Assembly (NCBI RefSeq): GCF_031157355.1
Contig: NZ_JAVIFT010000001.1
Coordinates: 1,178,001 to 1,242,000, forward strand
Direction of reading: 5' to 3'
Length of the DNA stretch: 64,000 nucleotides
DNA from: Hyphomicrobium sp. LHD-15
GTDB taxonomy: Bacteria; Pseudomonadota; Alphaproteobacteria; Rhizobiales; Hyphomicrobiaceae
The notes beneath the pieces were generated by a model. The model was not told where the DNA came from and did not search any database. It saw only the letters and a program-made list of their open reading frames with translations. The translations under genes were made by a program, and so were the position numbers. Shown one piece after another: positions 25,001 through 40,940 of the stretch (position 1 is its first letter; each line of letters starts with the position of its first letter).

Positions 25001-25826
25001 GCAAGACCGATCGCACAGGCTCGGTGAACGCGACGTGTACCGCGCCTTGGGCCGTCGGAATGTTTATATGCGGGGGAACGGACTCCCATTGGTCGAAAGC
25101 TTCGAGCCAACGCTCGGGGGCTCCCTCAAAACCTGGCTGAATTTCCACCACCGAGGTCTCGCCAAGATGAATCCGGCGAAACTCGATATCGAGCGTTTCA
25201 GGCGTGACGACGATGCTGCGCGCGAGGAAGTGATCAAGGACGGCGTCCGCTTCCACGGCCAAACGCCGGATACTGCCCCAGTGCCTGCGTGTCGTGACAG
25301 CGTTCCGATCTTGCGGGGGTCGCGCGTCAAATGCCGCAATGTCAGCGAGTAAACGCCAAACCGGCGCAGGCAAAAGGCAAAGAGCACCATCGACGCGTAT
25401 CATCCCGCCTGTCAGAGCCTGAATGCGGACGGGCCTACCGGTCGCGTCGACCCATCCGCTGATGGCAATGGAGAAATCTGGATCGGTCAAGGAGCCTTGA
25501 GATTGAAGGCGTGGAACCAACGGAAGGAATGGCGGCAAAAGAAGGAGCGGGAGGCTGGACGCATAGGCCCGCGACCGGCTCAGCTCATAAACTTGTTCCC
25601 ATGACATCGCATAGGCAAGATCTTGCTGCGTTGCGAGATCTTCGGTCACAAGCTGGTCGAGAAGGGAGGCGACCTCGGGTGACGACAAGGCGGCGCCTAT
25701 AACCTCCGGATCGTCACGCATAGACGTTTGGGGCTCCACCTGCAGACCCTCAGATGTCGCCAGCCAGTGAAATTGTGTTTCGCCTTCAGGGGGCGTGCGA
25801 TCGCGAAAAAGGCTCTGAAGCCTCAT
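22098..25826 (-). CDS. zorD: Zorya type I ZorD: SNF2 helicase with C-terminal Mrr-like nuclease domain
   Basis: 1242 residues, ATG 25826 directly after the zorC stop with GGTGGAGG upstream. Domains: a long N-terminal region (1-600) without a clear fold; SNF2 ATPase with Walker A GVLLADDMGLGKTLQLL (about 610), DEAQ in LVCDEAQKIKN (about 740), ATP-hydrolysis motifs in ACTGTPVENSLTDIW; helicase C lobe to RAYRIGQKKDV (about 1030); and a C-terminal Mrr-type PD-(D/E)XK domain (DAGVDVVGIRGQEGILIQCK, about 1130-1150). Known role in type I Zorya: the DNA-acting effector that handles invading phage DNA after ZorAB signalling. Last gene of the zorABCD operon. Confidence 0.92.
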   Translation of the reverse strand: MRLQSLFRDRTPPEGETQFHWLATSEGLQVEPQTSMRDDPEVIGAALSSPEVASLLDQLVTEDLATQQDLAYAMSWEQVYELSRSRAYASSLPLLLLPPFLPLVPRLQSQGSLTDPDFSIAISGWVDATGRPVRIQALTGGMIRVDGALCLLPAPVWRLLADIAAFDARPPQDRNAVTTRRHWGSIRRLAVEADAVLDHFLARSIVVTPETLDIEFRRIHLGETSVVEIQPGFEGAPERWLEAFDQWESVPPHINIPTAQGAVHVAFTEPVRSVLREIKRLPGRRAAGARAEAFLLNPIAALGDDAAKVIDIDQFTAARDRAEIQFEKFRPIILRDAAGYPGEVGIEIDLPNGNTVRKMFYDTTDIEAFVSALEHRLQNGLQLLSWQEFEFELDGDAPLHLADLKAALAARANPTLIRHDRVYDLSSYYDRIMGIGDAQPFISAYIVKKSDEEGWFQKNLLAILKFRPHNAAEDVTFPLSAEGLPDIATAIAEAKQDGSATVKLPGCPTELPLDEVDAAVTAFEAAIQQPPPPEAVAPEQEPQSRSRLTLLIKSNIDELDHQETREQRLAGTGAEMERPRALRAEVSLYPHQVSGVARLQHLFKASPDHCRGVLLADDMGLGKTLQLLTFITWAFEQNPDLPAAMIVAPVSLLENWQKEIVRYFEPGTTLVLTAYGDALADLRVPRASIDVDLQKEGLVRFLKPGWRGNAKIVLTTYETLRDLEFTFAQDQWSILVCDEAQKIKNPNTMVTRAAKKLNVRFRVACTGTPVENSLTDIWCLFDMVQPGLLGALNTFGREYGRVIETRTDTAAQKLEALRRIIEPQVIRRLKKDVATNLKKKIKAVCNVEMSNEQRMLYAGALELFNGQSDAEGQAALHHLGLLQHLRLICADPRHYGIETFVPEDLAIYRRKAPKMDWLLRTLHDIKAKGEKALVFAEHRDVQRLLQHYVRAEFKIVPAIVNGDTAVSAKSQRSREKIITKFQSVPGFGVLILSPLAVGYGVNIQEANHVIHYLRHWNPAKEDQATDRAYRIGQKKDVTVYCPLTRASDFKTFDVKLDELLELKRELAGDMLEGAGAVSLADFDLRDIAPDAERTLRNDPVTLDLVERSAPGFFEALAAALWQKQGYRCQLTQQSDAGVDVVGIRGQEGILIQCKTSSSTDKQLGWEAVRDVVGGTAIYEEKYPAVRFRRIGMTNQRFNLRAHDRARASNVQLIEQDGIARLLDEHPIGRLDVLAKLAEERVS

Positions 25827-25829
25827 GTA

Positions 25830-27416
25830 TCACCTCCACCAGCCGCGGCCGGCGCGGTAGTTGAAACCCCATTGGCTAAGCTGTCGGACGATATCCGGAT
25901 CCGCATCATCGATGCGGAGCCAAAGGTTGCCACCTTTGGAACGGTGATCTTCGAGGGCGATGGCGTTAGCAAAGGCGAAGTCGGTGATATCGGGAAGTGC
26001 AACACCGGTCTGTGGCTTTGCCGAAAACGCCGCGCGCTGATCACCAAGAACGCGCGCAAAAAGCTCCTGCCAACTGTAGCCATTGTTGCCCGCATGACGC
26101 ATTTGCTTGCCTGGAGGCTCGCGCTTCAGTCGCGAAACCGAAATAGCTTGCTTGGCGTCCTGGAGAGGCAGATCTGAACGCCTATAGCGATAGGCAGCGT
26201 TACCCTTCTTGCTGAACTCGACGACGACAATGTCGCCCATGCACATGATGAAAGCATTGTTGCTAGATTCGCTTCCTGTAAAATTGAGCAGGCGGCCGTC
26301 CATCGAGCGGCGAAGCTTTTCAATGTCGGGGTTTGTCGACCAGTAAGTGCGGCTGCCGAGCGCAAAGTATACGTCATCCATCCGATCATGATATTTGCGC
26401 CAGAATTCGAAGCGGCTTTTGTCCTGCCGCCCATCCTCGGACAGCACCTCAAAAAACTGATGGATGAGATCTAGCTTCAGCCAACCAGCGACCATCGAGC
26501 GAGCGGCCCCCGCTCGGCTCCATGCTGGATCATTGCGGTCGAGCCATGGGTTTTTCCAAGCCGAAACCAGTGCATCGCGTAGCGGCGCGTGAACGGGCGG
26601 GGACGGAATTGCGGCATACCGCTTGATGAGATCGACATAGATGTCGTCGCGCAGATGTTGGAAGCGGGGCTCCACCGCCGCCTCAAGAAACGCGGGAATG
26701 TGGGTCGCAAACGCCTGGTGGTCGAGGCTAAGCGCGATCTCAAGTGCAGATCGTATCGTTTCCCCGGCAAGCCATGACGTCCCCGGAAGCCTCAGACGCT
26801 GCATTGCATCCTGGAACGGGGCTTTGTCGCCTGCAATCCACGCAGCACCGAAGCGGTCTCCGGGGTCGGCTCCCAGAACGCCGGCGTAGTCGGCAAGCGC
26901 CCCCACCCATTCCGGGGAGGGTTCGATAGACTGGATTAGATCAACATTTTCTTGGAGAAATTTGCGCAACTGATCGTTGCCTGCACGAACCAGCTGAGTC
27001 CCGAACCATCGGCCCGTGCGCTCAGCGGTGAGATAAGAGGTGAGAAGGCCCTCGTAGAGACGGCGAAATCGGCGAGGCTGCTGACAGTGCGATGAGACCG
27101 CGGCAAGGAGCATATTGAGGCAGGCGTGGTCACCCAGGATGAGGTAGTCGTCAGATGCCAAGTGTAGGGTGACTCCATAACAGGCACGGCGGAGCGTTCT
27201 GAAGTCGACGTCGCCGTTCTGGTCGCGAACCCGCCGTATGGCCTCAATCATGCGGTCACCCGAAAGACTAGACGAACGGCGTGACGAGGAGCCGAAACGC
27301 CGTGCGATTGCCTCGGTTGCCTTTGCCATGCCCTCTGCAGTAGGCGATGCCCATGCGGCGAGAAGCTCATGATTGATCTTGGCCAGAGACGATGTGAGCG
27401 CAGAGATTGGACTCAT
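25830..27416 (-). CDS. zorC: Zorya type I ZorC (EH-signature protein)
   Basis: About 528 residues. Starts ATG 27419 or 27416, overlapping the zorB stop in ATGATGA, so translation is coupled; the upstream frame to 27437 is unlikely to be used. Mostly helical, no membrane segment. C-terminal motifs MCMGDIVVVEFSKKGNAAYR, HAGNNGYSWQELFARVLGD and GGNLWLRIDD fit the EH-signature family that defines ZorC. Role in the family: a DNA-associated cytoplasmic partner of ZorD. Identification rests on order between zorB and zorD plus these motifs. Confidence 0.85.
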   Translation of the reverse strand: MSPISALTSSLAKINHELLAAWASPTAEGMAKATEAIARRFGSSSRRSSSLSGDRMIEAIRRVRDQNGDVDFRTLRRACYGVTLHLASDDYLILGDHACLNMLLAAVSSHCQQPRRFRRLYEGLLTSYLTAERTGRWFGTQLVRAGNDQLRKFLQENVDLIQSIEPSPEWVGALADYAGVLGADPGDRFGAAWIAGDKAPFQDAMQRLRLPGTSWLAGETIRSALEIALSLDHQAFATHIPAFLEAAVEPRFQHLRDDIYVDLIKRYAAIPSPPVHAPLRDALVSAWKNPWLDRNDPAWSRAGAARSMVAGWLKLDLIHQFFEVLSEDGRQDKSRFEFWRKYHDRMDDVYFALGSRTYWSTNPDIEKLRRSMDGRLLNFTGSESSNNAFIMCMGDIVVVEFSKKGNAAYRYRRSDLPLQDAKQAISVSRLKREPPGKQMRHAGNNGYSWQELFARVLGDQRAAFSAKPQTGVALPDITDFAFANAIALEDHRSKGGNLWLRIDDADPDIVRQLSQWGFNYRAGRGWWR

Positions 27417-28375
27417 CATCGCCCTCCAATGCCGCAACGCCCGGACAGGTTGGGCACTGGGGCCGTGACAGTTTTGTCTTCATCAACCTGGTAGAATTCG
27501 ATGCGAAGTTCGATGCGGCGGCTTTCTTCGTCCGTGGCTTTGAGAGAGTTCGACGAGTAGCCGCCGACCAGAAAGAGCTGTTCGACGCGTGTCTGCTCGT
27601 CAGGTGGCAACGGGTCTAAAGACGGGGAGGTTTCGCGCCGGATTGAGCCTGTGGTGCTTGGCGCAAAGGGATCCTGCGCCGTTTGCGCGGTGGGCATGAC
27701 GCGCGAAGGAGCCGCATATTCTCCAGCCAGCAAAACGCACATCACGCGCTGGCTGCGGTTCAAACTAAGATTCAGATTGTGAAGATACGTACCCTTTTTG
27801 TCAGTGAAACCTTCGACCACGACCCGTTTGAGCCAAGACTGGCAGATGTCGCGATCCCTCCTAAGCACGGATAGGAATTGCAGAGTGAAGTTGCGTAGTG
27901 TCTGCGCCTGCTCGTAGCTCAACTCATTGCTGTTGAAGCCAAACTGCGCCCGAGACCCGAAATCGATGACATTGCGCGCTCGATCCAGGCGCACGCCGCC
28001 AGTAGCATTGTCATTGAAGTCGGCAATCAGGCGCTCGAGCTCGCCATGACAAGCAGAAATCTCAGCATTCCGCTGCTCACGACGTGTGTCGCGTTCCTCT
28101 TCTCGCCGCTTGAGTTCCGCCAGCGCTTCTGCCAACTTCTGCTTTTCGGCCTCAAGCGCCTTGTGAGCATTTTTGGCCGACGCTTCAGCTTCCTTGGCTT
28201 GCTTTTCCGCCTGGGTCGCCCGCTCGGTGTCTTTCTGAGCCTGCACGAGTGCGCTCGTGAGCGACACCAAAAATAGTACCATCAGTGCGGTCATCAGATC
28301 AGCGAACGAGATCCAGAATGGCTTCTCTGCTTCGTCGCGGTTGCCACGTTTCAAGCTGTGTCTGCGCCCTTGCAT
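27416..28375 (-). CDS. zorB: Zorya ZorB (MotB/OmpA-like stator subunit)
   Basis: 319 residues. One N-terminal transmembrane helix (FWISFADLMTALMVLFLVSL) with Asp26 in the position used for ion binding by MotB-type stators; a coiled coil with KQAKEAEASAKNAHKALEAE; then an OmpA-like peptidoglycan-binding domain (VIDFGSRAQFGFNSNELSYE, VEGFTDKKGTYLHNLNLSLN, RSQRVMCVLL). ZorB anchors the ZorA5-ZorB2 motor to the cell wall. The ATG lies 6 bases after the zorA stop. Confidence 0.92.
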   Translation of the reverse strand: MQGRRHSLKRGNRDEAEKPFWISFADLMTALMVLFLVSLTSALVQAQKDTERATQAEKQAKEAEASAKNAHKALEAEKQKLAEALAELKRREEERDTRREQRNAEISACHGELERLIADFNDNATGGVRLDRARNVIDFGSRAQFGFNSNELSYEQAQTLRNFTLQFLSVLRRDRDICQSWLKRVVVEGFTDKKGTYLHNLNLSLNRSQRVMCVLLAGEYAAPSRVMPTAQTAQDPFAPSTTGSIRRETSPSLDPLPPDEQTRVEQLFLVGGYSSNSLKATDEESRRIELRIEFYQVDEDKTVTAPVPNLSGRCGIGGR

Positions 28376-28381
28376 GTCGGA

Positions 28382-30370
28382 CTACGCGACCCTCTTCGGA
28401 GGCTCAGGCAAATCGCTCAGGGTGTCTTGCAGGTGGTCGATCGCGCTGGCGAGGAGTTGTGTCGACTTGGAGAGATGAGTGTGGAATTCTGCGTTCGCAT
28501 TGCTCAGAGCGCTTAACATCTGCTGATTGAAGGACCCGTGCGCGCCGGCAAGGACGTCATTTACCTTATCAAGGTAGACGTCCGCTTGGTTTTGCGCGGA
28601 GATGAGCTTCTGGGCTGCGGCCTCCATTCGCGCGACGATATCGTTTGTCATCGCGACTTCGCGCTTTGCAGTTTCCACAGTTCCCCTTAGTCCGTCCACC
28701 ACGCCAGCGAAAGTTTCGCGCGCGGCCCGATAGTCACTGACCACCGTCTGCACGTCTTGCGATGAATGGGAGAGCGTCGAGGCAGCCAGAGATAGCTCGG
28801 ATGACAGCACGCGCGATCGGTCCAACACCTCGGCCATAGCCGAACCGGAGGAAATAAAGCGGTCTGCGGCGTTGCGTATCTCGCCTGCACCCTCGCCCAT
28901 CAACGCAATGTTCCGATGGGTCGCGCTTCCGAGATCCGTGACGGCGGCGCGCATCGCGAGAGTAGTGTGTTCGATAGCCTCCGTTTGCGCACGAACACTG
29001 GTCGTCAGCTCGGCTATTGACTCCCTGGTATGGGACGCCATGGCCGAGACGCTATCCTGATGTGCAAGGCTCGAGGCCTTAGTTTCGGTCTGAAGCGTCT
29101 GCACGACCTGGCCGACCTGGGCTCCGATCTCCTGCAACATCGTCTGCACGTTCGATGTCGTATCTGCCTGTGTCTTGGTGACGACGCTGCGCAACTCGTC
29201 AACGACGGTACGCATGGTGTCATTCATCTGGCCTTGCTGTGCAGACAAGTCTTCGAGGGTACGGCTGAGTTGGGTTGAAATGGAAGCCGTCGCGCTTTCA
29301 CCGGCGCTCCCCACTTGCTGGGCCATGGATTGAAAGGATGTGACGGCCGACTCGAGGACTTGCAGCGTCTGTGCCTGCAACGCTCTGGCCTGGCCAACCT
29401 GGCCGCCCAGCATCTGATCCAGTTTGTCTGCAAAAGCGGCCATCGAGTCCTGAAGACCCTGGCTTAGCTGTTCACCTTGCCGGCTGCGAAATTGACCGAG
29501 ACTTTCGGCAATTTCGCCGAAGGGCTCGCGCAATCCATGATCTATCGCACTGACGAACTGGTCCCGAAGCTGGGCGTGCTGCTCGGCCGCCGTCTCAATC
29601 TGTCGTTCTGTAAGGCGTTCAAGAATGGCGCTCAAATCCCCGACAAGCGCGTCCTTAAGAATTTTTGCTTGGGCGGTGGATTCCTCTGACGCGTGCACGA
29701 GGCGCGAGAGATAGTCTTCGCTGGCGCCTGCGGCGTAGAGGGCGTCGATGTCCTGACACAAGTGTTCAACACTGCGATGTAAGCTCGCGACGATGAGCTT
29801 TTCAAAGAATGTGACGACCATCGCGAGGGTGATCGCCGCGGCGGAGACGTGAAAAGCCTCCTTCACCGAATCAATAAGCAAGTTCGTTTTTAGTGGCCCT
29901 CCGTCTCCCGGCGTGGCATTGCCGAGACCGTTGATGAGCCCCAAAAAGGTGGCGATGATGCCGAGGCCGGTCAAAAGCCCGGGCAAGTGTTTGAAAAACT
30001 CCGTATGGATGCGCCCTTCATAGACCGATTGAGCGTTGAAAAATGCTTCTGCTGGCACGGTGGCGCGCAATGGCGCGTCCCGGTGGATGCCACTCCGAGG
30101 ATCTAACGCGCCCCTCGGCAAATGTAGGGTTTCGCAATACTCGCTCCAGAGATGCTCCAGTCGCTCATCGCCGACTTTAAGGCGCTTAGGATCGCCGCGT
30201 GTTTGGCGGAGTTGGCGAATTTCGCGTGCTAACGCCGAAAGTTTCCGACGCAGGTTCACCCATGGCGCAATGAAGCCGAACAGAAACATGAGGACCGCAA
30301 GCATCAGCAGTCCCGCAAGCACGGGATTTTCCACCGCAGCGGTTGCGGCGTGGCGCAGTAGTTCTGGCAT
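28382..30370 (-). CDS. zorA: Zorya ZorA (MotA/ExbB-like motor subunit with long cytoplasmic tail)
   Basis: About 662 residues from ATG 30370 (a TTG at 30382 is the alternative). Transmembrane segments at about 17-38 (LAGLLMLAVLMFLFGFIAPW), about 130-150 (LPGLLTGLGIIATFLGLING) and about 175-195 (VSAAAITLAMVVTFFEKLIV), the MotA/TolQ/ExbB pattern. The rest, more than 400 residues, is a helical coiled-coil tail rich in Gln/Ala/Ser/Thr; this long tail is characteristic of ZorA and forms the rod projecting into the cytoplasm. First gene of zorABCD; upstream promoter not recognised. Confidence 0.92.
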   Translation of the reverse strand: MPELLRHAATAAVENPVLAGLLMLAVLMFLFGFIAPWVNLRRKLSALAREIRQLRQTRGDPKRLKVGDERLEHLWSEYCETLHLPRGALDPRSGIHRDAPLRATVPAEAFFNAQSVYEGRIHTEFFKHLPGLLTGLGIIATFLGLINGLGNATPGDGGPLKTNLLIDSVKEAFHVSAAAITLAMVVTFFEKLIVASLHRSVEHLCQDIDALYAAGASEDYLSRLVHASEESTAQAKILKDALVGDLSAILERLTERQIETAAEQHAQLRDQFVSAIDHGLREPFGEIAESLGQFRSRQGEQLSQGLQDSMAAFADKLDQMLGGQVGQARALQAQTLQVLESAVTSFQSMAQQVGSAGESATASISTQLSRTLEDLSAQQGQMNDTMRTVVDELRSVVTKTQADTTSNVQTMLQEIGAQVGQVVQTLQTETKASSLAHQDSVSAMASHTRESIAELTTSVRAQTEAIEHTTLAMRAAVTDLGSATHRNIALMGEGAGEIRNAADRFISSGSAMAEVLDRSRVLSSELSLAASTLSHSSQDVQTVVSDYRAARETFAGVVDGLRGTVETAKREVAMTNDIVARMEAAAQKLISAQNQADVYLDKVNDVLAGAHGSFNQQMLSALSNANAEFHTHLSKSTQLLASAIDHLQDTLSDLPEPPKRVA

Positions 30371-30598
30371 GAAGATATCCAAGCCTTGTGCCGCAGTTCC
30401 GATTGTGGCACGGCGACTAACACCTAAATTCAGAAGGCTGAATACTAACCGGCTAAATGATTCGTAACGGCCTGAACGAGGGGTTATCCACGGGCTGTGT
30501 TCGCGTGCGGAATGTTACGATCAGCTGAAACCACAAAAAGCGCTGAGTTTGCGGCCCTATAATCCGCCGGAGCCACATCCTGCTGAAAACCGACCTGC

Positions 30599-30893
30599 AT
30601 GTCTGCATTGCCCTCGCCAGCGGAGATCGACCTGCCTGCTCACGACGGACTGCACATTCGAAAGCGAGCTTCTCTCCGTACCGCTCGCTCGTACGCCGTG
30701 TCCCGCATAATCTCGCGACATGAGCGGGGGGGGCACAATCGATTCGAAAAGAAGTCGCTTAGCAAGGTCACTGGCGCAACTAAGGCATCGAACGACCTGT
30801 CCGAAAGCTGCGTCGCGTTCGCAACGGCGGTCGACGGTACGACAGTGATCGGCATCGAGAACGATGACAATGTCTCGCCGCCGCAGAAGCACC
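30599..30893 (+). pseudogene. Possible AlbA_2/Schlafen-like ATP-binding domain remnant
   Basis: The frame from ATG 30599 contains SESCVAFATAVDGTTVIGIE and NDDNVSPP, close to the AlbA_2 domain consensus (K-x-ICAFAN-x-GGTLLIGI-x-DDG). The frame before it is irregular and the frame after it runs out into the start of the DUF3883 gene, so only a fragment remains. It lies between the zor operon and the divergent cassette. Homology is short, so the call is tentative. Confidence 0.4.
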
Positions 30894-31784
30894 ATGACAG
30901 ACCGCGTTCCTCCTCATCTGATTGCAAATCCCGACACAGGACTCATGCTGCCTACCGTGGATACGATACCGCCAAATTTTGATTGGACGACGGGAGAACT
31001 GATCCTCATCGTCACCGACTATTTTTCGATGCTTGATGCGGAGTTGGCGGGTCGCGCCTACTCGAAGGCCGAGCACCGAAGAGCGTTGCTTGAACTAGTC
31101 AAAAGGAGCGAGGGATCGATAGAGTTTAAGCACCAGAACATCAGTGCAGTTCTGCAGGATCTCGGCCTCCCCTGGATTCCCGGCTATAAGCCCAGGTCCA
31201 ACTATCAAAACGCCTTGCTGGAAGCCGTCGAGGTTCATCTCGATCGACATCTGCCGATACAGAACACTCCCTTCGACAACTTCCGTTATCCCTTTGATGC
31301 CGCGGACGTCCTGGTGCCGCCGCCTGATCGCCGGATAGGCTCAACTAGTCCAGTTTTCGAACGGGTTATTCGAAAGTTCGATCCGGCTGCACGTGATGCG
31401 CACAATCGAAAGCTCGGCAGGGCGGGGGAGGAGTTTGTCCTCAACTTCGAGCGACAACGTCTTAACGCCCTTGGCTGCGGCAGGCTCGCGGACAAAGTCC
31501 GGTGGGTCGCAGATGTCGACGGTGACGGCGCCGGGTTCGATATCCTGTCGTTCGAACCCGACGGCGATGAAAGATTGCTGGAGGTCAAAACGACCTGCGG
31601 TGCCGCCCGTACGCCATTCTACATCAGTCGAAACGAGCTTAGTCTTGCCGAACAACGGCCGACGGAGTTCCGGTTGGTCCGGGTCCATCAATTCGCGAAC
31701 GACCCCAAGATATTCATTCTTGAACCTCCCCTGCCGGACCAGATAAGCATAGAACCGGTTGCGTATCGGGCAGCCTGGAACTAA
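30894..31784 (+). CDS. DUF3883-domain protein
   Basis: About 296 residues from ATG 30894. N-terminal half: LILIVTDYFSMLDAELAGRA, RRALLELVKRSEGSIEFKHQ and LGLPWIPGYKPRSNYQ, a pattern found in restriction-associated proteins. C-terminal half: GRAGEEFVLNFERQR, ADVDGDGAGFDILSFEPDGD and RLLEVKTTCGAARTPFYISR, the DUF3883 domain, which has the E-x-D-x-ExK spacing of PD-(D/E)XK nucleases. It heads the plus-strand cassette, 92 bp upstream of the methyltransferase. Probably a nuclease or DNA-recognition component (inference). Confidence 0.75.
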   Translation: MTDRVPPHLIANPDTGLMLPTVDTIPPNFDWTTGELILIVTDYFSMLDAELAGRAYSKAEHRRALLELVKRSEGSIEFKHQNISAVLQDLGLPWIPGYKPRSNYQNALLEAVEVHLDRHLPIQNTPFDNFRYPFDAADVLVPPPDRRIGSTSPVFERVIRKFDPAARDAHNRKLGRAGEEFVLNFERQRLNALGCGRLADKVRWVADVDGDGAGFDILSFEPDGDERLLEVKTTCGAARTPFYISRNELSLAEQRPTEFRLVRVHQFANDPKIFILEPPLPDQISIEPVAYRAAWN

Positions 31785-31876: not shown

Positions 31877-32998
31877 TTGCATGCATCCATGACTCAACGC
31901 CGACGTCCCTCAACGTCTAAAGCCCGGAAAGCAGGCTCGTTTGCAAAGCTGAAATCGGCGGCGCGACCGTCAGCGATTGACCTATTCTGCGGTTGTGGCG
32001 GTCTTTCTCTGGGCTTGAAGAACGCGGGGTTTTCGGTCGTCGCTGCCGTCGACACCGATGCCCTCGCTTGTGCCACCTACCGGGCGAATCATCGCGCCAC
32101 GCTGCTGCTGGAAAAGGATATCCAGGACATCGATCCTGCCGAACTAATGGTCGAACTCGGTCTCAAAGAGGGTGAGTTAGGCCTACTCGCAGGCTGCCCG
32201 CCTTGCCAGGGCTTCTCAACGCTCAGAACGCTTAACGGCGGCAAGAAGATTTCCGAGCCGATGAACGACCTTGTGTTTCAGTTTTCACGCTTCATCAAGG
32301 TCTTCAAGCCGAAATCTGTGATGGTGGAAAATGTGCCTGGTCTGGCGGGCGACGAACGTCTGGCGAAGTTCCGAGGCTTTTTGTCGGCCATGGGATACAA
32401 GTCCTGCATCGACGTCTTCGATGCCGCCGACTTCGGCGTTCCACAGCGCCGCCGTAGGATGATCCTTCTGGCCGCACGTGGGACCAGGCCTGAGTTCGCA
32501 GCGCCCGCTAAGCGCAAGCGTTCAGTGCGCTCTGCGATAGCGAATCTCCCGGCGCCACAGGTAACGACCGATCCCGCACACAATCATCCTGCCGACCGTG
32601 CACCTCACGTCATGGATATCATTCGCAGGATTCCCAAAGACGGAGGCAGTCGCAGGGAGCTGGGCGAAGATGCGCAGCTGCCGTGCCACCGCAAATGCAA
32701 CGGGTTCAAAGACATTTATGGACGGATGAGTTGGGACAAACCTTCGCCGACCATTACGGGTGGCTGCATCAATCCGTCGAAAGGCCGTTTCCTCCATCCT
32801 GAGCAGGACCGGGCGATAACGCTGCGCGAAGCTGCCATGCTTCAAGGGTTCCCGGTCAATTATCGTTTTGATCTCTCAAAGGGGCGTTATCCCGCCGCTC
32901 AGATGATCGGTAACGCTTTCCCGCCGGCGTTTGCAGCTCATCACGCCAAGTCTCTTCGCGGTCTTATTAGCTGCTATTTGCGCAATCTAGAGACATGA
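31877..32998 (+). CDS. DNA (cytosine-5) methyltransferase
   Basis: 373 residues from ATG 31877 (ATG 31889 possible). Motifs: I, AIDLFCGCGGLSLGLKNAGF; IV, GCPPCQGFS with the catalytic Cys; VI, VMVENVPGL; VIII, QRRRRMILL; IX, TLREAAMLQGFP; X, QMIGNAFPPAFA. The target-recognition region between VIII and IX (about 200-300) is short. Makes 5-methylcytosine in DNA using SAM. First methyl-donor gene in a run with GHKL, DUF4420 and Z1 genes; the convergent Vsr gene fits as repair of 5mC deamination products. Confidence 0.95.
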   Translation: MHASMTQRRRPSTSKARKAGSFAKLKSAARPSAIDLFCGCGGLSLGLKNAGFSVVAAVDTDALACATYRANHRATLLLEKDIQDIDPAELMVELGLKEGELGLLAGCPPCQGFSTLRTLNGGKKISEPMNDLVFQFSRFIKVFKPKSVMVENVPGLAGDERLAKFRGFLSAMGYKSCIDVFDAADFGVPQRRRRMILLAARGTRPEFAAPAKRKRSVRSAIANLPAPQVTTDPAHNHPADRAPHVMDIIRRIPKDGGSRRELGEDAQLPCHRKCNGFKDIYGRMSWDKPSPTITGGCINPSKGRFLHPEQDRAITLREAAMLQGFPVNYRFDLSKGRYPAAQMIGNAFPPAFAAHHAKSLRGLISCYLRNLET

Positions 32999-33017
32999 CG
33001 AAAGAGCGGGGGAAGTT

Positions 33018-34640
33018 ATGGTGGGCTGGCGATCGAGATTTGGCTTCCAGCACCTCACCGGTGCTGGGTCCTCTTCCCGGCCCAGCCATGATGACGAAGC
33101 CGTTGAAGCGTTAGCCCAACCGACCGCCACCGCAGATCAAGGGGCCATTTGGTCCGTCGACATTCCGATAGCGGGAAAGAGGACACTTCCTCCGGACCCT
33201 CGGATGATGAAGGCTATCGGCTTAAACCATTCGTTTGAGTCGGCCGTCGCGGACATCGTAGACAACTCGTTGGATGCCGGTGCGAGGAAGGTGCTGATCC
33301 GGTTTATCCGTGACTCAGCGAGCCTACGCAGCATCTGCATCGTCGACGACGGCCACGGGATGGATGACAAGACCATCGACCGCGCCATGACTGTGGGCGG
33401 CGATCGGAATTACGACGAAGACGATCTTGGACACTTCGGTATCGGCTTAAAGGCCGCGTCTCTCGGTCAGGCTCGGAAGCTTACTGTCGTATCGAGAGCT
33501 GCCAACCAACCCGCCGTCGGAAGGCGCTGGTTGATCGACGCTGCATCCAAGGGCTTCGAATGCGACGTAGTAGGAAGCGGCTTCGCAACTTCGCTGCTCG
33601 ATCGTGATTGGAGACATCTAACGCCGTCCAGTGGTACCATCGTGCTGTGGACCGAGGTAAAGAGCTTTGCCGCTATCGCCGACGCCAAAGCCTTAGACCG
33701 ATTTATCGACAGTTACTTGACTAAGCTTCGGCACCATCTGGGGCTCGTCTATCATCGTCTGCTCGCGGCCAAGAAAGTGGAGATCGCTGTTGATGTCGAG
33801 GACGTCGCCGCTGGCGAGGTCGGATTGCCCTTCTCAGTCGATCCTATCGATCCGTTTGGATACATTCGCTCGTGTCGAGGAGACTATCCGAAGGTCTTGA
33901 GATCGACTTGGCGGGATCGACCTATCGAGCTGAACTGCTGTATCTGGCCTGGTCGTTCGAACCACGCGAACTTTAAATTGTCGGGCGAGAAGGCTGAACC
34001 GTTCCAAGGCTTCTTCATCTATCGGAACGGCCGGCTACTTCAGCGCGGCTCCTGGAACGGCGCTGTCCTTCCGGAAAGAGAGCTTCAGCTCGCAAGGGTC
34101 GCCATCGATATCGACGACACGCAATCAGCCCTTTTTACGATGAACGCCGAGAAGACGCGCGTCGAAGCTTCTTCCGAATTCGGTGCCGTGGTCCAGTCCG
34201 CAACCGACGGGAAAACCACCTTCTTGCAATACCTTGATCACGCGCGATCGGCCTACCGAGACAGTCAAAAACGCAAGCGGGAACGACCGAAGGTTCGGCG
34301 ACCGGGCAAGGGATTTGCCGAGGCGGTCAGATCGGCCATCGACGACGAGTACGAATTTCTACCGGGGGAGGCCTTGGACGTTCGTTGGGTCGACCTGGGC
34401 GACGATACGTTTTTTGAGCTCGATCGCGAGGATTCGTTGATCAGACTGAATCGCCGGTACCGCTCGGCGATCATCGGGGGACGCGATTCCAGCCTCAACG
34501 ATGCCCCGTTGGTCAAAGCGCTCATCTATCTTCTGGCCGAAGAGAGCTTCCATGGTGCGTTTCTAGGCGCCAAGCGAAAAGACAATTTGGCCATGTGGCA
34601 GTCTATCCTGACGGCTGCAGCACGCGCGGAGTCGAAATGA
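33018..34640 (+). CDS. GHKL ATPase of the MORC/MutL-like type (R-M associated)
   Basis: 540 residues, ribosome site GGGGGAAG before ATG 33018. The ATPase lobe has FESAVADIVDNSLDAGARK (about 76-90), VDDGHGMD (about 111) and DLGHFGIGLKAASLGQARKL (about 139-158), all three GHKL motifs. C-terminal part (KRKRERPKVRRPGKGFAEAV) is charged. Homologues in modification-type systems are predicted relatives of eukaryotic MORC ATPases that act as DNA clamps. Overlaps the next gene in ATGA (34637-34640), so translation is coupled. Confidence 0.85.
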   Translation: MVGWRSRFGFQHLTGAGSSSRPSHDDEAVEALAQPTATADQGAIWSVDIPIAGKRTLPPDPRMMKAIGLNHSFESAVADIVDNSLDAGARKVLIRFIRDSASLRSICIVDDGHGMDDKTIDRAMTVGGDRNYDEDDLGHFGIGLKAASLGQARKLTVVSRAANQPAVGRRWLIDAASKGFECDVVGSGFATSLLDRDWRHLTPSSGTIVLWTEVKSFAAIADAKALDRFIDSYLTKLRHHLGLVYHRLLAAKKVEIAVDVEDVAAGEVGLPFSVDPIDPFGYIRSCRGDYPKVLRSTWRDRPIELNCCIWPGRSNHANFKLSGEKAEPFQGFFIYRNGRLLQRGSWNGAVLPERELQLARVAIDIDDTQSALFTMNAEKTRVEASSEFGAVVQSATDGKTTFLQYLDHARSAYRDSQKRKRERPKVRRPGKGFAEAVRSAIDDEYEFLPGEALDVRWVDLGDDTFFELDREDSLIRLNRRYRSAIIGGRDSSLNDAPLVKALIYLLAEESFHGAFLGAKRKDNLAMWQSILTAAARAESK

Positions 34641-35629
34641 GCCGTCAAGATGAGCCACAACGACACCTGAGCATCGACGGCTTCTCCGAGTATTTGGCTG
34701 CTGGCGCACCTTCTGCGCTAAAGATCGACGGTGAGCCGGTCGTCTACATCTCGTTCGATCCCAACCTTCCCAGGCTCACCTTGAGAACACCGCTTGGGAA
34801 GCAATCGATACCCGACCTCTCCGGTTACGATCGCATATCGGCTTCGTCGGTTTATTGGAACGACGGTCAATGGTGTGAGCTTCGCCTGGATGGAGAGATT
34901 ATCAAGGACGCGTATCCGATATTTTGTTCGATTGCCGACCGTATTCAACTCCGAGCTATGAATTTCGGAGGCGCAGTGGTCGACGCTCTTGGCTCATTAC
35001 GCGAATTGCTGTCCGGAAAAGGCAGACTTAGCCACGAGCAGGAGATTGGACTTTACGGCGAAGTATTACTGGTCTGCTCTTTGCTGAGCACAATGCCGGC
35101 TTCGGAAGTCCTTGCGTCTTGGCGTGGACCTGAAGCCGAAGAACACGACTTCACGCTTCATTTCGACGATGTCGAAGTGAAGTGCACGACCGCCGAGGAA
35201 CGTGCTCACTGGGTCAACGGTTTCCGCCAGTTGGAACCGACCGTAGGGAGAAAACTCTGGCTTCTATCCGTTCAGTTGACGGCAGCCGGATCGTCCGGAA
35301 CTTCTCTGGCGGAACTCGTAGCCCAAACACGGTCCCTTTTGGCAGATCCCGCGCTGCTGCGGGAACTCGACCAAAAGCTTGCACTTCTGAATTGGCGAGA
35401 CGACTCCGCTGCGCTGTACGGCCGACGGTATCGTCTCAGGTCATTGCCTCGTTTATTCCAGATCGACGATGGGTTCCCTGCGTTGACCCCGAGTCGGTTT
35501 GAGAGCGCAGGGCTGGCGCACGAACGTGTTAGCCAAATCCGATATCAAATCGACTTGGAGGGGCTTCCCGGAGCATCGGAGTTCCCCCGCGAGCTAACGA
35601 ATTTCTGTGCGGGGGGTGAATTTGTCTGA
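34637..35629 (+). CDS. DUF4420 PD-(D/E)XK-motif protein
   Basis: 330 residues from ATG 34637, overlapping the ATPase stop. The nuclease-like core is LSHEQEIGLYGEVLLV, EEHDFTLHFDDVEVKCTTAE, giving E-x-D-x-ExK. Such proteins are the presumed restriction nuclease of the methylase/GHKL/Z1 systems. No membrane segments. The 3' end overlaps the Z1 gene by up to 22 bases. Confidence 0.8.
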   Translation: MSRQDEPQRHLSIDGFSEYLAAGAPSALKIDGEPVVYISFDPNLPRLTLRTPLGKQSIPDLSGYDRISASSVYWNDGQWCELRLDGEIIKDAYPIFCSIADRIQLRAMNFGGAVVDALGSLRELLSGKGRLSHEQEIGLYGEVLLVCSLLSTMPASEVLASWRGPEAEEHDFTLHFDDVEVKCTTAEERAHWVNGFRQLEPTVGRKLWLLSVQLTAAGSSGTSLAELVAQTRSLLADPALLRELDQKLALLNWRDDSAALYGRRYRLRSLPRLFQIDDGFPALTPSRFESAGLAHERVSQIRYQIDLEGLPGASEFPRELTNFCAGGEFV

Positions 35630-38564
35630 TGTCCTCATTGCGGCCTATTCGGCCGCCCTAGGTGCAATGGAAGCCGGCGGGCCGAAGCCACTGCTGCCGC
35701 GTGCAATGCTTGAAGGGTCGGAGCGCGATGCAAAGACCGACGTTGGGCTTACTGCACTTAGCGCATACCTGAACACGGCGTCTCTCAACGACGATCTGCG
35801 TAAGCGACTGCACATGGCAGTCTCACGTTGGGATATCAGTCCCGAAGGTGCTGAATGGGCTTCGGACACGCCGGCTAGGTCGAGTGCTCGCAGGCAAGCC
35901 ATCTACGATCGACTAGGTCTTCTCACACACCAAACAATCGTTGACCAGTTCAACGACCTGTTTCCGCTTGAGACCGATACTCCGGTTGTCATTAGCGATA
36001 AGTTCGAACCCTGGTATACGGCGGAGCGAAGTGAAAAGAATGCCTTCTATTGGCCCGGCTACATTAAGCTACTTGCTGGAAAAGGATGGTCGGCGGACGC
36101 ATTAGCCGGTCTTGACGAAGCCACGACCAAGGTCGTCGAGCGTTTGACCGATCCATACAGGTTAGAGGCGCGTCAAGCGAAGGGCCTCGTGGTCGGATAC
36201 GTTCAAAGCGGAAAAACGGCCAACTTTACGGGGGTGGTCGCAAAGGCCGTAGATGCCGGCTACAGGCTGATCGTCATTCTCACTGGCACGATCGATGTAC
36301 TTCGGAAACAAACGCAACGCCGCTTGGACATGGAGTTACTTGGCAAGGAGAACATTCTGCGCGGCGTCGATCCGAACGATCCCGAGACCGTTGCCCACGC
36401 AGACTACCAGGACGACCCCGATTGGTCTCGATTCGTCGAGTTTGGCTTCCTGCCGTCAACCCGCAACTTTCCCGACATCATCCGCCTTACAAGTCGCAAC
36501 TTCGATTACAAGAGCCTGCGAGCGGGCATTGTGGCACTTGAATTCGAGAAGTCAGATAAGTCTAAGGCATTAGTCGATCCGGCCAATCTTCCTTCAAGCT
36601 CAGCACGCATCGTGGTGGTCAAGAAAAACAAGGCGGTCCTCAAGAAGTTCGTAAAGGACTTGAAGAGCATCAAGACTCCAAGGCACGAAATCCCCGCGCT
36701 CATCATCGACGATGAATCCGACCAAGCATCGGTCAATACGTCCAACCCGAGCAAGTGGAAGGGACAACTTCCGGGCAGCGAAGAGCGAACCGCCATCAAT
36801 AAGAGTATCTCGGACCTGCTTACCCTGCTCCCGCGCGCGCAATATGTAGGCTACACCGCGACCCCCTTCGCTAATGTGTTCATCGATCCGGGCGACGCAT
36901 TCGACATATTCCCCAGAGACTTTCTCATCAGCTTAAGTCGGCCTGTTGGCTACATGGGGGTGAAGAACTTTCACGATATCGGCAACGAAGTCGATCCCGA
37001 CGATAGGACCGTTTCCAACTCGAACGAGGCTGCCTTTGTCCGCGATCTGCGCGATGGGGAGGACTGGGACAAGAAGCTTCAGGAAAGCCTGGATGCCTAC
37101 GTGCTGGCCGGTGCCCTCAAGCTTTATCGCGAGAAGACCGATGGCGAAACTTATCGTCACCATACGATGCTCGTTCATGCCTCGGTTCAGCAGCAGGAGC
37201 ATGCCGAACTAGCGAAACAGATTCGCGATCTTTGGAAATCTGCCGGGTACAGCAGCACAAGCGGATTGGCCCGACTAAGAAAGCTGTACGATGGCGATTT
37301 CCTACCGGTGTGCAGAGCGCGGGCAGGCAATTACACTTTCCCTTCGCACTTCGACGATCTGAAACCACACATCGCAGGTGCAATCAGCAGGATTACTAGT
37401 CACACGGATCCAGTGCTCGTCGTCAACGGGGACAAGGAGATGGCGTCGGAAGACGTCGACTTCGATAAGCGCCAAGTATGGAGGATTCTTGTAGGCGGCA
37501 CCAAGCTCAGTAGGGGGTTCACAGTCGAAGGGCTAACCGTTTCCTACTATCGTCGAAAGACCAAACAGGCCGACACCCTTATGCAAATGGGTCGCTGGTT
37601 TGGTTTCCGTAATGGGTACGAAGACCTGGTAAGACTGTACATCGGCAGGGCAGAGCCCGACGGTATTAAAACGGTCGATCTTTATGAGGCGTTTGACGCG
37701 ATCGTGCGGGACGAAGAGGCGTTCCGAGACCAACTCCGGCAGTATGCCGAGATGGTTGACGGCCGCCCTCAAATTACGCCCAAGGACATACCTCCGTTGG
37801 TGTCCCAGCATCTGCCATGGCTGAAGCCAGCAGCGAAGAACAAGATGTTCAACGCGGAGCTGGTCGTAAGGCGCTCGGCAGGATCACTAGTTATCCCGAC
37901 CGGGTACCCGGTGGCCGACGATCTGAAGGAACATAACTACCGAGCGGTACTTCCGCTTCTAGCGGCAGCCTCTGAGAAGGTGCAACTGCTAGTCCCTACC
38001 TTGCCCAATGTGACGGCAACCCAGTTTGATGCCTGGATCGGCGAAGTCGACACGGACAAGTTTCTGAGAGCTATCGACGGAATAAAGTGGATCACCACCG
38101 ACTACTACGCTCCGGACAAGGCTTTCCTGCACGAGATATCGGGAGTGGTCCGCAACTGGACCGTAATCGTTCCGCAAACGGGCGTAGCGAAGAACCGGCG
38201 CGACCTGCCCGATGTTGGCGAGCGTGTTATCGTCGAGCGTGGACCGAAACCGCCGTCGAACAAGCTATGGGGCGAGCCTACCGATCGAAAGCATCGTCCC
38301 GCCGCGCAGTTTTTGGCAGGCAGCCTCGCCGATTATGGCGATACGGTTCTTAGTTCACGTAAATCTCCGGATAAAGGTGCGGTACTCGTGTACCCCATGG
38401 CTCCGAATCCCGCGGAATTGCCCGCCAAACCGGAACCCAAGGACATTGTTCTCGGCGTAGCGTGGATTGCTCCATCGCATCTCAGGTCATCAGCAAACGA
38501 GGTCGTTCAGTTCAGAGCCAAGAACAGCGATCTGGCCAATGAGCCGATCGTGCCGGCGAATTAG
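35607..38564 (+). CDS. Z1-domain superfamily II-type ATPase
   Basis: About 985 residues. Start GTG 35607 or GTG 35616; both overlap the upstream gene. Walker A GLVVGYVQSGKTANFTG (about 193-209), Walker B ALIIDDESDQASVNT (about 365), YVGYTATPFANVFIDP, and the Z1 signature GGTKLSRGFTVEGLTVSYYR (about 630) with QMGRWFGFRNGYEDLVRLYI. The Z1 domain is the family-defining C-terminal helicase-like part. Predicted DNA-translocating motor of the cassette. Last gene of the coupled group. Confidence 0.92.
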   Translation: MRGVNLSDVLIAAYSAALGAMEAGGPKPLLPRAMLEGSERDAKTDVGLTALSAYLNTASLNDDLRKRLHMAVSRWDISPEGAEWASDTPARSSARRQAIYDRLGLLTHQTIVDQFNDLFPLETDTPVVISDKFEPWYTAERSEKNAFYWPGYIKLLAGKGWSADALAGLDEATTKVVERLTDPYRLEARQAKGLVVGYVQSGKTANFTGVVAKAVDAGYRLIVILTGTIDVLRKQTQRRLDMELLGKENILRGVDPNDPETVAHADYQDDPDWSRFVEFGFLPSTRNFPDIIRLTSRNFDYKSLRAGIVALEFEKSDKSKALVDPANLPSSSARIVVVKKNKAVLKKFVKDLKSIKTPRHEIPALIIDDESDQASVNTSNPSKWKGQLPGSEERTAINKSISDLLTLLPRAQYVGYTATPFANVFIDPGDAFDIFPRDFLISLSRPVGYMGVKNFHDIGNEVDPDDRTVSNSNEAAFVRDLRDGEDWDKKLQESLDAYVLAGALKLYREKTDGETYRHHTMLVHASVQQQEHAELAKQIRDLWKSAGYSSTSGLARLRKLYDGDFLPVCRARAGNYTFPSHFDDLKPHIAGAISRITSHTDPVLVVNGDKEMASEDVDFDKRQVWRILVGGTKLSRGFTVEGLTVSYYRRKTKQADTLMQMGRWFGFRNGYEDLVRLYIGRAEPDGIKTVDLYEAFDAIVRDEEAFRDQLRQYAEMVDGRPQITPKDIPPLVSQHLPWLKPAAKNKMFNAELVVRRSAGSLVIPTGYPVADDLKEHNYRAVLPLLAAASEKVQLLVPTLPNVTATQFDAWIGEVDTDKFLRAIDGIKWITTDYYAPDKAFLHEISGVVRNWTVIVPQTGVAKNRRDLPDVGERVIVERGPKPPSNKLWGEPTDRKHRPAAQFLAGSLADYGDTVLSSRKSPDKGAVLVYPMAPNPAELPAKPEPKDIVLGVAWIAPSHLRSSANEVVQFRAKNSDLANEPIVPAN

Positions 38565-38586
38565 TCAGGCGTGCGTTTGCCTAGGC

Positions 38587-38988
38587 TTAATCTAAGAATG
38601 TTCGAAGCCGCCGCCTAAGTTTTGCGGGATCGGCCATATCGCATTCCCATAAGACCAGCACACGCCAACCGTCCTGTCGCAAGGAACGAATGTTGCGCAG
38701 ATCGCGTGCTTGGTTTCTTTTCAGTTTTGCGGTCCAGAAGCCCCTATTCGTCGCGGGAGGCGCGCCCCGTTTGCACGTATGCCCGTGCCAAAAGCAGCCG
38801 TGCACCAAAATTATCTTACGCCGCGACGCGAAAACCAGGTCCGGCCGACCGGGTAGCTTCGACCCGTGCAACCGATACCGATAACCGAGCGAATGAGCCA
38901 GCCTTCGAACAAGCAATTCGGGCCTAGTATCTTTGCCGCGAATGCGCGACATAAGTTCCGATCTCTGCCCTTTGGTGAGCCGATCCAC
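38587..38988 (-). CDS. vsr: Very short patch repair endonuclease (Vsr)
   Basis: 133 residues with start GTG 38988 (VDRLTKGQRSELMSRIRGKD is the normal Vsr opening). Other motifs: RLHGSKLPGRPDLVFASRRK with catalytic Asp, ILVHGCFWHGHTCKRGAPPA with the structural Cys/His, and GWRVLVLWECDM. Nicks 5' of T in T:G mismatches created by deamination of 5-methylcytosine, matching the C5 methyltransferase at 31877. Convergent with the Z1 gene (23-bp gap). The reading frame continues unbroken upstream into a recombinase remnant, annotated separately. Confidence 0.9.
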   Translation of the reverse strand: MDRLTKGQRSELMSRIRGKDTRPELLVRRLAHSLGYRYRLHGSKLPGRPDLVFASRRKIILVHGCFWHGHTCKRGAPPATNRGFWTAKLKRNQARDLRNIRSLRQDGWRVLVLWECDMADPAKLRRRLRTFLD

Positions 38989-39186
38989 GTCTTGGACTGA
39001 GCCTCCCTGTGGACTAACGGGTCTAACCGATATCGCCTTGACCTTGTCGATATCCAAGTACGCGGACGTGGCCGACAGTGACTCGTGCCCCAGCAGTCTG
39101 CGCACGACTTCCGGATTATCGGTTATCTCGTAGACGCGCACGGCCTTCGTGGGGCCGGAGCTATTGTCCGGCCCAAAACGGAAGTT
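38989..39186 (-). pseudogene. Tyrosine recombinase C-terminal remnant, in frame with vsr
   Basis: Upstream of the vsr start in the same frame: EITDNPEVVRRLLGHESLSA then TSAYLDIDKVKAISV, the box II of tyrosine recombinases with the conserved His (LGH) and the nucleophile Tyr. The catalytic Arg region and N-terminal half are missing; a TAA stop lies upstream near 39190. A former integrase was cut at the edge of the cassette, and no stop separates it from vsr, so a fused product is possible. Confidence 0.65.
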
Positions 39187-39653: not shown

Positions 39654-40601
39654 GTGAAGGTCATCTTCGACACGAATATCTGGCGCTATCTAGTGGATGA
39701 TGAAGCCATCACGGTTGTGCAGCAGTTATGCAGACGTCGAAAGCTGACTGTTGTGGTGCCCCCAGCGACAGCGTTTGAGTTCGCAGCGACAGGAGATCGG
39801 GAAGTTCGTCTGGCACTCATCCGAGCAATATGTTCGCCAGAGTGGAAGCGGCTGATGCCCGAGGCATACACGTCGAGCCTTGAGATTGTGGATGAACTCG
39901 CGCGGTGCCGCCCGCAATGGATGCTGCCGAAGACCGATAAACATAGGCTCCAGCCGCTGTTTCGCGACTGGAAGGCAAAAAATGGGTTCTGGAGGCGGCT
40001 GACAGAGCAACCGGACGAATTCGCAGACGTCCTCAAGCATGCAGATTTACCAACGCTCAACGGTGCTCGCGCGCAAGCTTACGGTCGCCGAAAGGATTTT
40101 CTCGCACAAGGGCTGACGAAAACAGCACATCTCGATAAATGGGAGGGAGCTTTCCCTGCACCGCGTGAAGGCTGGGATGGTGATAAGATTGAAGCCTGGC
40201 GGCCTGAATCAATGGCAGCAATCACCTATGCGCTGTCCCTAGCGCACGGCCCTTATTGGGATTGGATTCGCTGTTTCGTCGACCTCGATAGAGTTGACGT
40301 CCACGGCCCTGATTGGCTCAGATTTTGGCTATACGATTGCGAACGCGATCGCCTGCCGCTGCAGTGGTTGTGGTGGGCAGTAAGTTTTCTTCAGGCCTTT
40401 CGCAAGACAACGGACGGTAATCCAGCGGATACCCAGTTGGCACAATACCTGCCCGAGTGCGATGTCTTCGTAACGGCCGATAAGGGCTTCGGCTGGGTCG
40501 TCGATGAGTGCCGCAAGTACGACGTGTGCGCCTTGCCTGATGTTTGGATCATTCCGGGCGGTGGAAATGGCGTGACACAAATGCTTGCCCGGTTTGCATA
40601 A
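39654..40601 (+). CDS. PIN-domain protein
   Basis: 315 residues; start GTG 39654 (M in VIFDTNIWRYL). Acidic PIN residues: FDTNIW near the N-terminus, FEFAATGDREV, and ADTQLAQYLPECDVFVTADK with KGFGWVVDEC near the C-terminus. The PIN fold is thus split by a long insert (about 90-250) with several Trp residues. Not a VapC-type toxin by size and without an antitoxin neighbour. It is the last gene before tRNA-Leu, probably an island-encoded RNase (inference). Confidence 0.75.
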   Translation: MKVIFDTNIWRYLVDDEAITVVQQLCRRRKLTVVVPPATAFEFAATGDREVRLALIRAICSPEWKRLMPEAYTSSLEIVDELARCRPQWMLPKTDKHRLQPLFRDWKAKNGFWRRLTEQPDEFADVLKHADLPTLNGARAQAYGRRKDFLAQGLTKTAHLDKWEGAFPAPREGWDGDKIEAWRPESMAAITYALSLAHGPYWDWIRCFVDLDRVDVHGPDWLRFWLYDCERDRLPLQWLWWAVSFLQAFRKTTDGNPADTQLAQYLPECDVFVTADKGFGWVVDECRKYDVCALPDVWIIPGGGNGVTQMLARFA

Positions 40602-40853: not shown

Positions 40854-40940
40854 TGGTGCGGACGGTGGGACTCGAACCCACACGACGTTGCCGTCTCAGG
40901 ATTTTAAGTCCTGTGTGTCTACCGATTCCACCACGTCCGC
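40854..40940 (-). tRNA. tRNA-Leu(UAA)
   Basis: 87 bases with encoded CCA: acceptor GCGGACG/CGTCCGC, long variable arm, anticodon TAA at 40904-40906 in loop CTTAAAA, T-arm GTGGGTTCGAGTCCCAC. Its 3' end faces the island, the usual side for tyrosine-recombinase integration. Confidence 0.97.

What the first reader, a model, noticed from the sequence alone, without database searches (positions are those of the whole stretch)
31877..38988. Methyltransferase - MORC-like GHKL ATPase - DUF4420 nuclease - Z1 ATPase - Vsr cassette
Four tightly spaced or overlapping plus-strand genes plus convergent vsr form an intact system with a DNA motor, clamp-like ATPase, nuclease-like protein and C5 methylase. This architecture has been predicted computationally as a restriction-like conflict system related to eukaryotic MORC origins, but its mechanism is largely untested. 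It is the best candidate here for poorly described biology.
Basis: partly seen in the sequence, partly recalled or inferred. Interest (0 to 1): 0.75.

Follow-up and report, generated by a model that had tools for sequence, protein, structure and literature searches.

The report
MORC-Z1 restriction-like cassette, chimeric origin
The finding is a real, intact-looking five-gene cassette predicted to restrict foreign DNA, of a kind already described in print; its DNA-handling proteins resemble actinobacterial ones while its repair enzyme is of the local type, and in relatives the methyl-marking gene is often a different one.

Summary
In detail: 31877-38988 encodes a C5-cytosine methyltransferase (M), a MORC-type GHKL ATPase (B), a DUF4420 PD-(D/E)XK protein (D), a Z1/SF2 helicase (C) and a convergent Vsr (V), family motifs intact. 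The kind is not new: MORC + Z1 + RE-fold + cytosine methylase/Vsr operons were described in 2008 (Iyer), and a Z1/PD-(D/E)XK/MTase putative defence system in 2022 (PMC9523054). It is a sibling of the MZA system, not MZA: other gene order, no AIPR, separate clade. New here: (1) in 25 genomes of this type (window's included) a C5-MTase lies within 15 kb of the Z1 gene in 24 and a Vsr in 22, yet B, D and C diverge in step (r 0.84-0.91) while M and V follow them only weakly (r 0.21-0.32); (2) the window cassette looks chimeric: its Z1 protein nests among actinobacterial relatives, its Vsr among alphaproteobacterial ones; (3) D is missing beside C in 9 of 26 loci, and in one a NaeI restriction endonuclease follows C instead. 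Best reading: an ATP-driven restriction system with an inherited engine (MORC clamp, SF2 motor, usually D as nuclease) and an often-exchanged methyl-mark gene. What tells the engine which DNA to spare is the open question. No activity was measured.

The parts
31877..32998 (+). M: C5-cytosine DNA methyltransferase, 373 aa (possible ATG at 31889); the only C5-MTase match at E 1e-6 in the 4.29-Mb assembly
   Evidence: Pfam DNA_methylase 9e-56; PCQ 109, ENV 151; 1 match in G000
33018..34640 (+). B: MORC-type GHKL ATPase, 540 aa
   Evidence: HATPase_c_3 1.2e-25; MORC S5 motif GFFIYRNGRLL from residue 331; K379 invariant in 20 of 20 aligned
34637..35629 (+). D: DUF4420, predicted PD-(D/E)XK nuclease, 330 aa from the ATG that overlaps the B stop
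   Evidence: PF14390 9.5e-37; E142, D171, E180, K182 invariant in 23 of 23; AlphaFold2 pLDDT 90.1; no PDB match at E 0.001 or better
35607..38564 (+). C: Z1 protein, SF2 helicase-like motor, 985 aa; the Pfam Z1 domain (491-735) appears to be the second RecA-like half
   Evidence: Z1 5.7e-58; motifs; AlphaFold2 pLDDT 79.9; Foldseek best matches DEAD-box helicases, E 7.3e-8, TM-score 0.26 by query and 0.51 by target
38587..38988 (-). V: Vsr very-short-patch mismatch endonuclease (ORF open to 39141); the only Vsr match at E 0.001 in the assembly
   Evidence: Vsr 1.5e-28, TIGR00632 1e-41; 1 match in G000; groups with alphaproteobacterial Vsr

Best explanation
The cassette is an ATP-dependent restriction-modification-type defence made of two loosely joined modules. 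Engine (B, D, C): C is an SF2 motor that moves on or remodels DNA; B is a dimeric MORC clamp that closes on DNA with ATP; D is the PD-(D/E)XK nuclease that cuts foreign DNA. Mark (M, V): M methylates the host at one motif so that host DNA is spared, and V repairs the T:G mismatches that arise when methylated cytosine deaminates. The engine is inherited as a unit while the methyltransferase is often a different one, so the engine probably does not carry a large fixed recognition domain matched to one M; it may be told where to act by M itself or by another exchangeable recogniser. Shown by sequence: genes, motifs, linkage, co-divergence, mixed ancestry. Inferred: enzyme activities, complex formation, defence, self/non-self logic.
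For: Families and intact motifs. C model resembles SF2 helicases. D model has helix(E142)-strand(D171 at its start)-strand(E180, K182)-strand-helix-strand, the order of a PD-(D/E)XK core (the core order is recalled). MTase and Vsr linkage in 24 and 22 of 25 genomes. Co-divergence B-C 0.91, D-C 0.84, B-D 0.88, against M-C 0.21, M-B 0.26, M-D 0.32 and V-C 0.23 in the fullest set. Defence surroundings: a type I Zorya set at 22098-30382 and a PDC-S36 gene at 30864-31784. Precedents: a Z1-domain ATPase driving a restriction nuclease beside a C5-MTase in CglI and NgoAVII (PMC4267653 passages; PMC5737866 abstract); a GHKL domain joined to a PD-(D/E)XK nuclease in the phage-defence protein VcSduA, both needed (PMC12137116 passages).
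Against: No experiment. D has no significant match to a solved structure. D is missing beside C in 9 of 26 loci and 3 of 11 genomes searched have no DUF4420 match, so another nuclease serves there or cutting is not the output. The mark is not fully independent: after I fetched MTase and Vsr genes that lay outside the first stretches, correlations rose from 0.14-0.25 to 0.21-0.32, several at p below 0.01; Vsr proteins of L017-L020 are 55-66% identical, and the M proteins of L018 and L019 71%. The gene nearest to C need not be its partner. B has Asp at the general-base position.
Confidence: 0.6

Rival explanations
1. Conventional matched restriction-modification: B-D-C recognises the same motif as M through its own compact DNA-reading segment, for example the fast-changing part of C after Z1, and unmethylated motifs trigger cutting.
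For: CglI works with recognition by its R-protein. C residues 751-850 are among the least conserved; identity there falls to 23-53% in the pairs L018-L020, L019-L020 and L017-L020, against 60-97% over residues 106-450. M does follow the engine weakly (r 0.21-0.32).
Against: The first 60 residues of C are also variable (37-67% in those pairs). No segment of B, D or C clearly tracks M, its target region or V in 48 partial tests; the best p is 0.002 (limit 0.001 after Bonferroni) and lies in B 251-430, not in that part of C (run before the further M and V genes were fetched). C is 69-73% identical in L017-L018, L017-L020 and L018-L020 while M is 30-32% identical.
Confidence: 0.22
2. B-C(-D) is an accessory machine for ordinary type II restriction systems: a standard REase finds the motif and cuts, and the MORC-Z1 pair processes the DNA or helps the REase.
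For: NaeI follows C on the same strand in L044, where D is missing (1.7e-117), and lies beyond M in L022, which has D (3.4e-79); NaeI was found in 2 of 27 genomes, both times at this locus. An Eco29kI-like gene is about 1 kb upstream of B-D-C in L019; an HNH protein lies between M and V in L053. A Corynebacterium island in print holds an EcoRII-like REase with Z1, DUF4420 and Dcm-like genes (PMC5379612 passage).
Against: Such an enzyme was seen in 4 loci; not every neighbour was scanned (30 entries, some repeats or genes already assigned). None was found beside the window cassette. The one candidate there, the NOV_C/PDC-S36 gene, was tested and rejected: 0 of 16 homologous loci had a C5-MTase in the roughly 5-8 kb of flank read.
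Confidence: 0.15
3. MORC-Z1 is a DNA-structure or silencing machine that compacts incoming DNA, with D and the MTase as secondary parts.
For: MORC kinship; D is dispensable in the family.
Against: Strong linkage to methylation and repair genes; D motifs are invariant where D is present.
Confidence: 0.08

Closest known systems
Third type of MORC operon of Iyer, Abhiman and Aravind 2008 (PMC2292703; parts 1 and 2 of 4 read)
   Same: MORC with its S5 motif, SF2 helicase with DThhQXuRhFG, RE-fold partner with E-D-ExK; cytosine methylases and Vsr frequent nearby
   Different: No difference seen in the gene set; the parts read report no experiment and nothing on exchange of M or V between engines
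Putative defence system type I of PMC9523054 (section 11 read)
   Same: Z1 + PD-(D/E)XK + C5-MTase core; AIPR is named for type II only; association with DNA repair endonucleases
   Different: Described as six genes; the three extra genes are not named in the text read, so one-to-one identity is unproven
MZA (mzaABCDE), called validated in PMC9523054 (passages; Gao 2020 itself is not held)
   Same: Homologous MORC/MutL-like ATPase, Z1 and DUF4420 proteins
   Different: Order B-C-D with AIPR (L014, L015) against M-B-D-C without AIPR; window 86/218/36 bits for MzaB/C/D against 361/558/93 in a Rhizobium etli locus; separate clade
CglI / NgoAVII ATP-dependent RM systems (PMC4267653 passages; PMC5737866 abstract)
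   Same: Z1-domain SF2 ATPase working with a nuclease, C5-MTase partner
   Different: The nuclease is a PLD-B3 R-protein; the system is described as three genes, with no MORC or DUF4420

Membership tests
Iyer 2008 type-3 MORC operon | MORC-specific S5 motif GhXhhpXXRhl | tested here: met
   GFFIYRNGRLL from B 331
Iyer 2008 type-3 MORC operon | SF2 helicase with motif DThhQXuRhFG | tested here: met
   DTLMQMGRWFG from C 656
Iyer 2008 type-3 MORC operon | Extra RE-fold gene with E-D-ExK | tested here: met
   E142, D171, E180, K182 invariant in 23 of 23
PMC9523054 type I putative system | Z1 + PD-(D/E)XK DUF protein + C5-MTase | tested here: met
   (the paper prints DUF4220; I take it to mean DUF4420)
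PMC9523054 type I putative system | Six genes, three beyond the core | tested here: inconclusive
   Five genes found; the extra genes are not named in the section read
MZA | AIPR protein MzaE | tested here: not met
   No AIPR or MzaE match among the five genes and the two flanking genes (for M only the best 25 of 58 PADLOC matches were shown)
MZA | NCBIfam equivalog cut-offs for MzaB/C/D | tested here: not met
   124.6 of 850, 287.3 of 1500, 82.5 of 420 bits
MZA | Z1 protein falls in the AIPR-associated clade | tested here: not met
   7 AIPR rows form one group (100/98), 2 more rows without a seen AIPR lie on that side; the window is in the other clade (100/100)
CglI-type RM | PLD-B3 restriction subunit | tested here: not met
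   No such Pfam match among the cassette proteins
ATP-dependent restriction system (function) | Sequence-specific methylation and ATP-dependent cleavage of unmethylated DNA | not testable with these tools
   Needs bench work

The most novel reading that the evidence does not exclude
The MORC-Z1(-DUF4420) unit is a restriction engine that accepts different methyltransferases and takes its target from whichever C5-MTase module it is joined to, so a new specificity is gained by exchanging the mark genes, even across phyla, as the actinobacterial-type Z1 protein with an alphaproteobacterial Vsr in this window suggests. The nuclease is exchangeable too (DUF4420, NaeI).
Probability: 0.25. Interest if true: 0.7.

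Novelty: new member of a known kind. Interest (0 to 1): 0.45.

Why it matters
In ordinary restriction-modification the methyltransferase and nuclease must read the same motif, so exchanging one alone should be dangerous. A family in which the cutting engine and the methyl mark stay linked but evolve largely apart makes a direct, testable question: what tells the engine which DNA to spare? It also bears on what MORC ATPases did before eukaryotes used them on chromatin.

Tried and rejected
1. Upstream NOV_C/DUF3883 gene (30864-31784, PDC-S36) as the cassette's restriction enzyme: rejected, 0 of 16 homologous loci had a C5-MTase nearby (5 plasmid loci; 11 genome loci; scan, in which the profiles for NOV and the Zor proteins were missing and gave errors, while those for M, B, C, D, V and AIPR ran; phmmer found the NOV homologue in all 16).

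3. Full independence of M and V from the engine: my first tests gave M-C 0.14, p 0.064, and V-C 0.14, p 0.22, and M-C 0.16, p 0.044 with another distance. So the coupling is weak, not absent, and I lowered the probability of the novel reading from 0.3 to 0.25 and raised that of matched recognition from 0.2 to 0.22.

4. A recognition segment in B, C or D that tracks M: not found. Reading the window methyltransferase motif from relatives: not possible; identity over the TRD region to the other 27 M proteins compared is 11-41%.

5. Structure match for D: none at E 0.001 or better. The second-look library was not available.

6. Repeat of the tRNA-Leu end as an island border: none in the window. 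Promoter and terminator scans: not above shuffles. 16S rRNA of the host: not found.

7. Rows left out: L026 (near copy of L025) and L049 (Z1 gene without motifs, no B or D) from the Mantel tests; L049 and L050 (contig end) from the Z1 tree; G797 and G654; L013, L014 and L015 from the alignments that were folded. G028, a distant relative in the same family, was not fetched beyond short hits.
Full report
Observation. Four genes run head to tail with a 19-nt gap, a 4-nt overlap and a 23-nt overlap; vsr converges on them 22 nt after the Z1 gene. The assembly has one match each for C5-MTase (E 1e-6) and Vsr (E 0.001), both here. The general-base position of the MORC ATPase holds Asp in 20 of 20 relatives aligned, a family trait rather than decay.

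What it is. Iyer et al. 2008 (PMC2292703, parts 1 and 2 of 4 read) describe this gene set as the third type of prokaryotic MORC operon, with cytosine methylases and Vsr frequent nearby. PMC9523054 (section 11 read; passages) names a putative defence system with a Z1 protein, a PD-(D/E)XK protein and a C5-MTase; its type II has AIPR and resembles mzaABCDE, which it calls validated. Gao 2020 could not be read. The window cassette is not MZA: it scores far below the NCBIfam cut-offs, shows no AIPR match, has another gene order (compare L014 and L015), and its Z1 protein lies in a separate clade. Hence a new member of a known kind. I saw no experimental study of this type in the listings (titles and abstract openings; open-licence papers only; one search matched 1,337 papers, most by chance, of which 25 were listed).

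Where its relatives are. With the Z1 protein at E 1e-100, 13 of 394 genomes of the class of Actinomadura (G495) match, two of them known beforehand, against 2 of 398 in the window's phylum; at E 1e-60, 1 of 385 in its class. The last two counts include the window's own genome. In the host's own family 6 of 103 genomes match at E 1e-20; apart from the window these are distant partial matches, and the four of five that I fetched carry AIPR. In the Z1 tree the window groups with an Acidimicrobiia sequence (98/95) inside a 25-row group (99/98) whose other rows are actinobacterial by record name or drawn from the class or order of Actinomadura. Its Vsr groups with Vsr of Rhizobium, Neorhizobium and a genome of the window's class (98/94), and all 6 Vsr rows from that side separate from the 14 actinobacterial ones (99/98). 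The host is probably an alphaproteobacterium: one backbone protein (hydantoinase) is closest to Rhizobium plasmid records at about 60%, but no name was obtained. So the cassette looks chimeric. M is undecided: its best matches are 38% (actinobacterial) and 36% (the class relative).

Engine and mark. In 25 genomes taken for their Z1 gene (25 of 27, see observation check), a C5-MTase lies within 15 kb in 24 and a Vsr in 22, with 0.31 and 0.20 expected. Distance matrices of B, D and C agree closely (B-C 0.91, n 24; D-C 0.84, n 17; B-D 0.88, n 17). M and V follow them weakly. First tests: M-C 0.14 (n 18, p 0.064), M-B 0.15 (p 0.047), M-D 0.20 (n 14, p 0.054), V-C 0.14 (n 15, p 0.22), V-D 0.25 (n 12, p 0.078), M-V 0.29 (n 14, p 0.002); with BLAST scores and another choice of M, 0.16, 0.15 and 0.17. 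With the MTase and Vsr genes of six more loci added: M-C 0.21 (n 23, p 0.007), M-B 0.26 (n 22), M-D 0.32 (n 16), V-C 0.23 (n 21, p 0.06), V-D 0.31 (n 14), M-V 0.34 (n 20, p 0.0005). In the close set L017-L020, Z1 proteins are 69-80% and B 75-84% identical; M is 30-32% in five of six pairs but 71% in L018-L019, and Vsr is 55-66% in all six. Three other pairs keep both M and engine alike (L022/L023, L041/L042, L025/L044). So M is often, not always, a different one; Vsr follows more than M in the close set.

Nuclease. D stands within 300 nt of C in 17 of 26 loci of this type (window included) and not in 9, two of which (L025, L026) are near copies; the tree needs 5 changes for the D-less label, one of them outside this clade. 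Of 11 genomes searched, 3 (all D-less at the locus) have no DUF4420 match, and in a fourth the only one belongs to a neighbouring MZA-side locus; the other D-less genomes were not searched whole. In L044 a NaeI restriction endonuclease follows C on the same strand; L022 has NaeI besides D, L019 an Eco29kI-like gene, L053 an HNH protein between M and V. NaeI was found in 2 of 27 genomes, both times here. So the MORC-Z1 pair is the constant core and the nuclease appears exchangeable.

Structure. The AlphaFold2 model of D (pLDDT 90.1) has the secondary-structure order of a PD-(D/E)XK core with the four invariant residues placed as expected, but no significant match to a solved structure. The model of C (pLDDT 79.9) matches DEAD-box and other SF2 helicases (best E 7.3e-8, modest TM-scores). 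The Pfam Z1 region holds the strands of the second RecA-like half, and DTLMQMGRWFG sits where SF2 motif VI would be; that assignment is recalled, not computed.

How it most likely works. C moves on or remodels DNA, B clamps it with ATP, D cuts, M marks the host motif, V repairs deaminated methylcytosines. This is inference from families and from CglI/NgoAVII, in which a Z1-domain ATPase drives a nuclease, and from VcSduA, in which GHKL and PD-(D/E)XK parts are both needed. Since M often differs where the engine is close, a large fixed, matched recognition domain in B, D or C is not favoured, though a small one is not excluded. Guidance by M, or by a separate exchangeable enzyme, would explain both the linkage and the loose coupling.

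Limits.

Noticed in passing
22098-30382 (-): Complete-looking type I Zorya set: ZorD 22098-25826, ZorC 25830-27437, ZorB 27416-28375, ZorA 28382-30382, on the strand opposite to the cassette (PADLOC; ZorB by NCBIfam below its cut-off).
   Followed up: partly
30864-31784 (+): NOV_C/DUF3883 gene (PADLOC PDC-S36, 5.3e-107) 92 nt upstream of M; none of 16 homologous loci had a C5-MTase near.
   Followed up: yes
38989-39141 (-): The open frame in front of vsr reads, by eye, like the last part of a tyrosine recombinase (RRLLGHESLSATSAYLDI); no Pfam match.
   Followed up: partly
39654-40601 (+): 315-aa protein without Pfam, PADLOC or NCBIfam match; by eye PIN-like.
   Followed up: no
40854-40940 (-): tRNA-Leu(taa) at the right edge of a lower-GC stretch, a possible island border; no repeat of its end elsewhere in the window.
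   Followed up: partly
18619-19251 (-): Serine resolvase (Pfam Resolvase 4.9e-48).
   Followed up: no
L013:3120-6407: 1096-aa TmtA-like protein (PADLOC 2.7e-47) between M and B of an Arthrobacter plasmid cassette.
   Followed up: no
L048:12882-19000: HEPN_Swt1/DUF499 and DUF1156 methylase genes lie directly before B-D-C, with a C5-MTase and a Vsr about 9 kb from the Z1 gene.
   Followed up: partly
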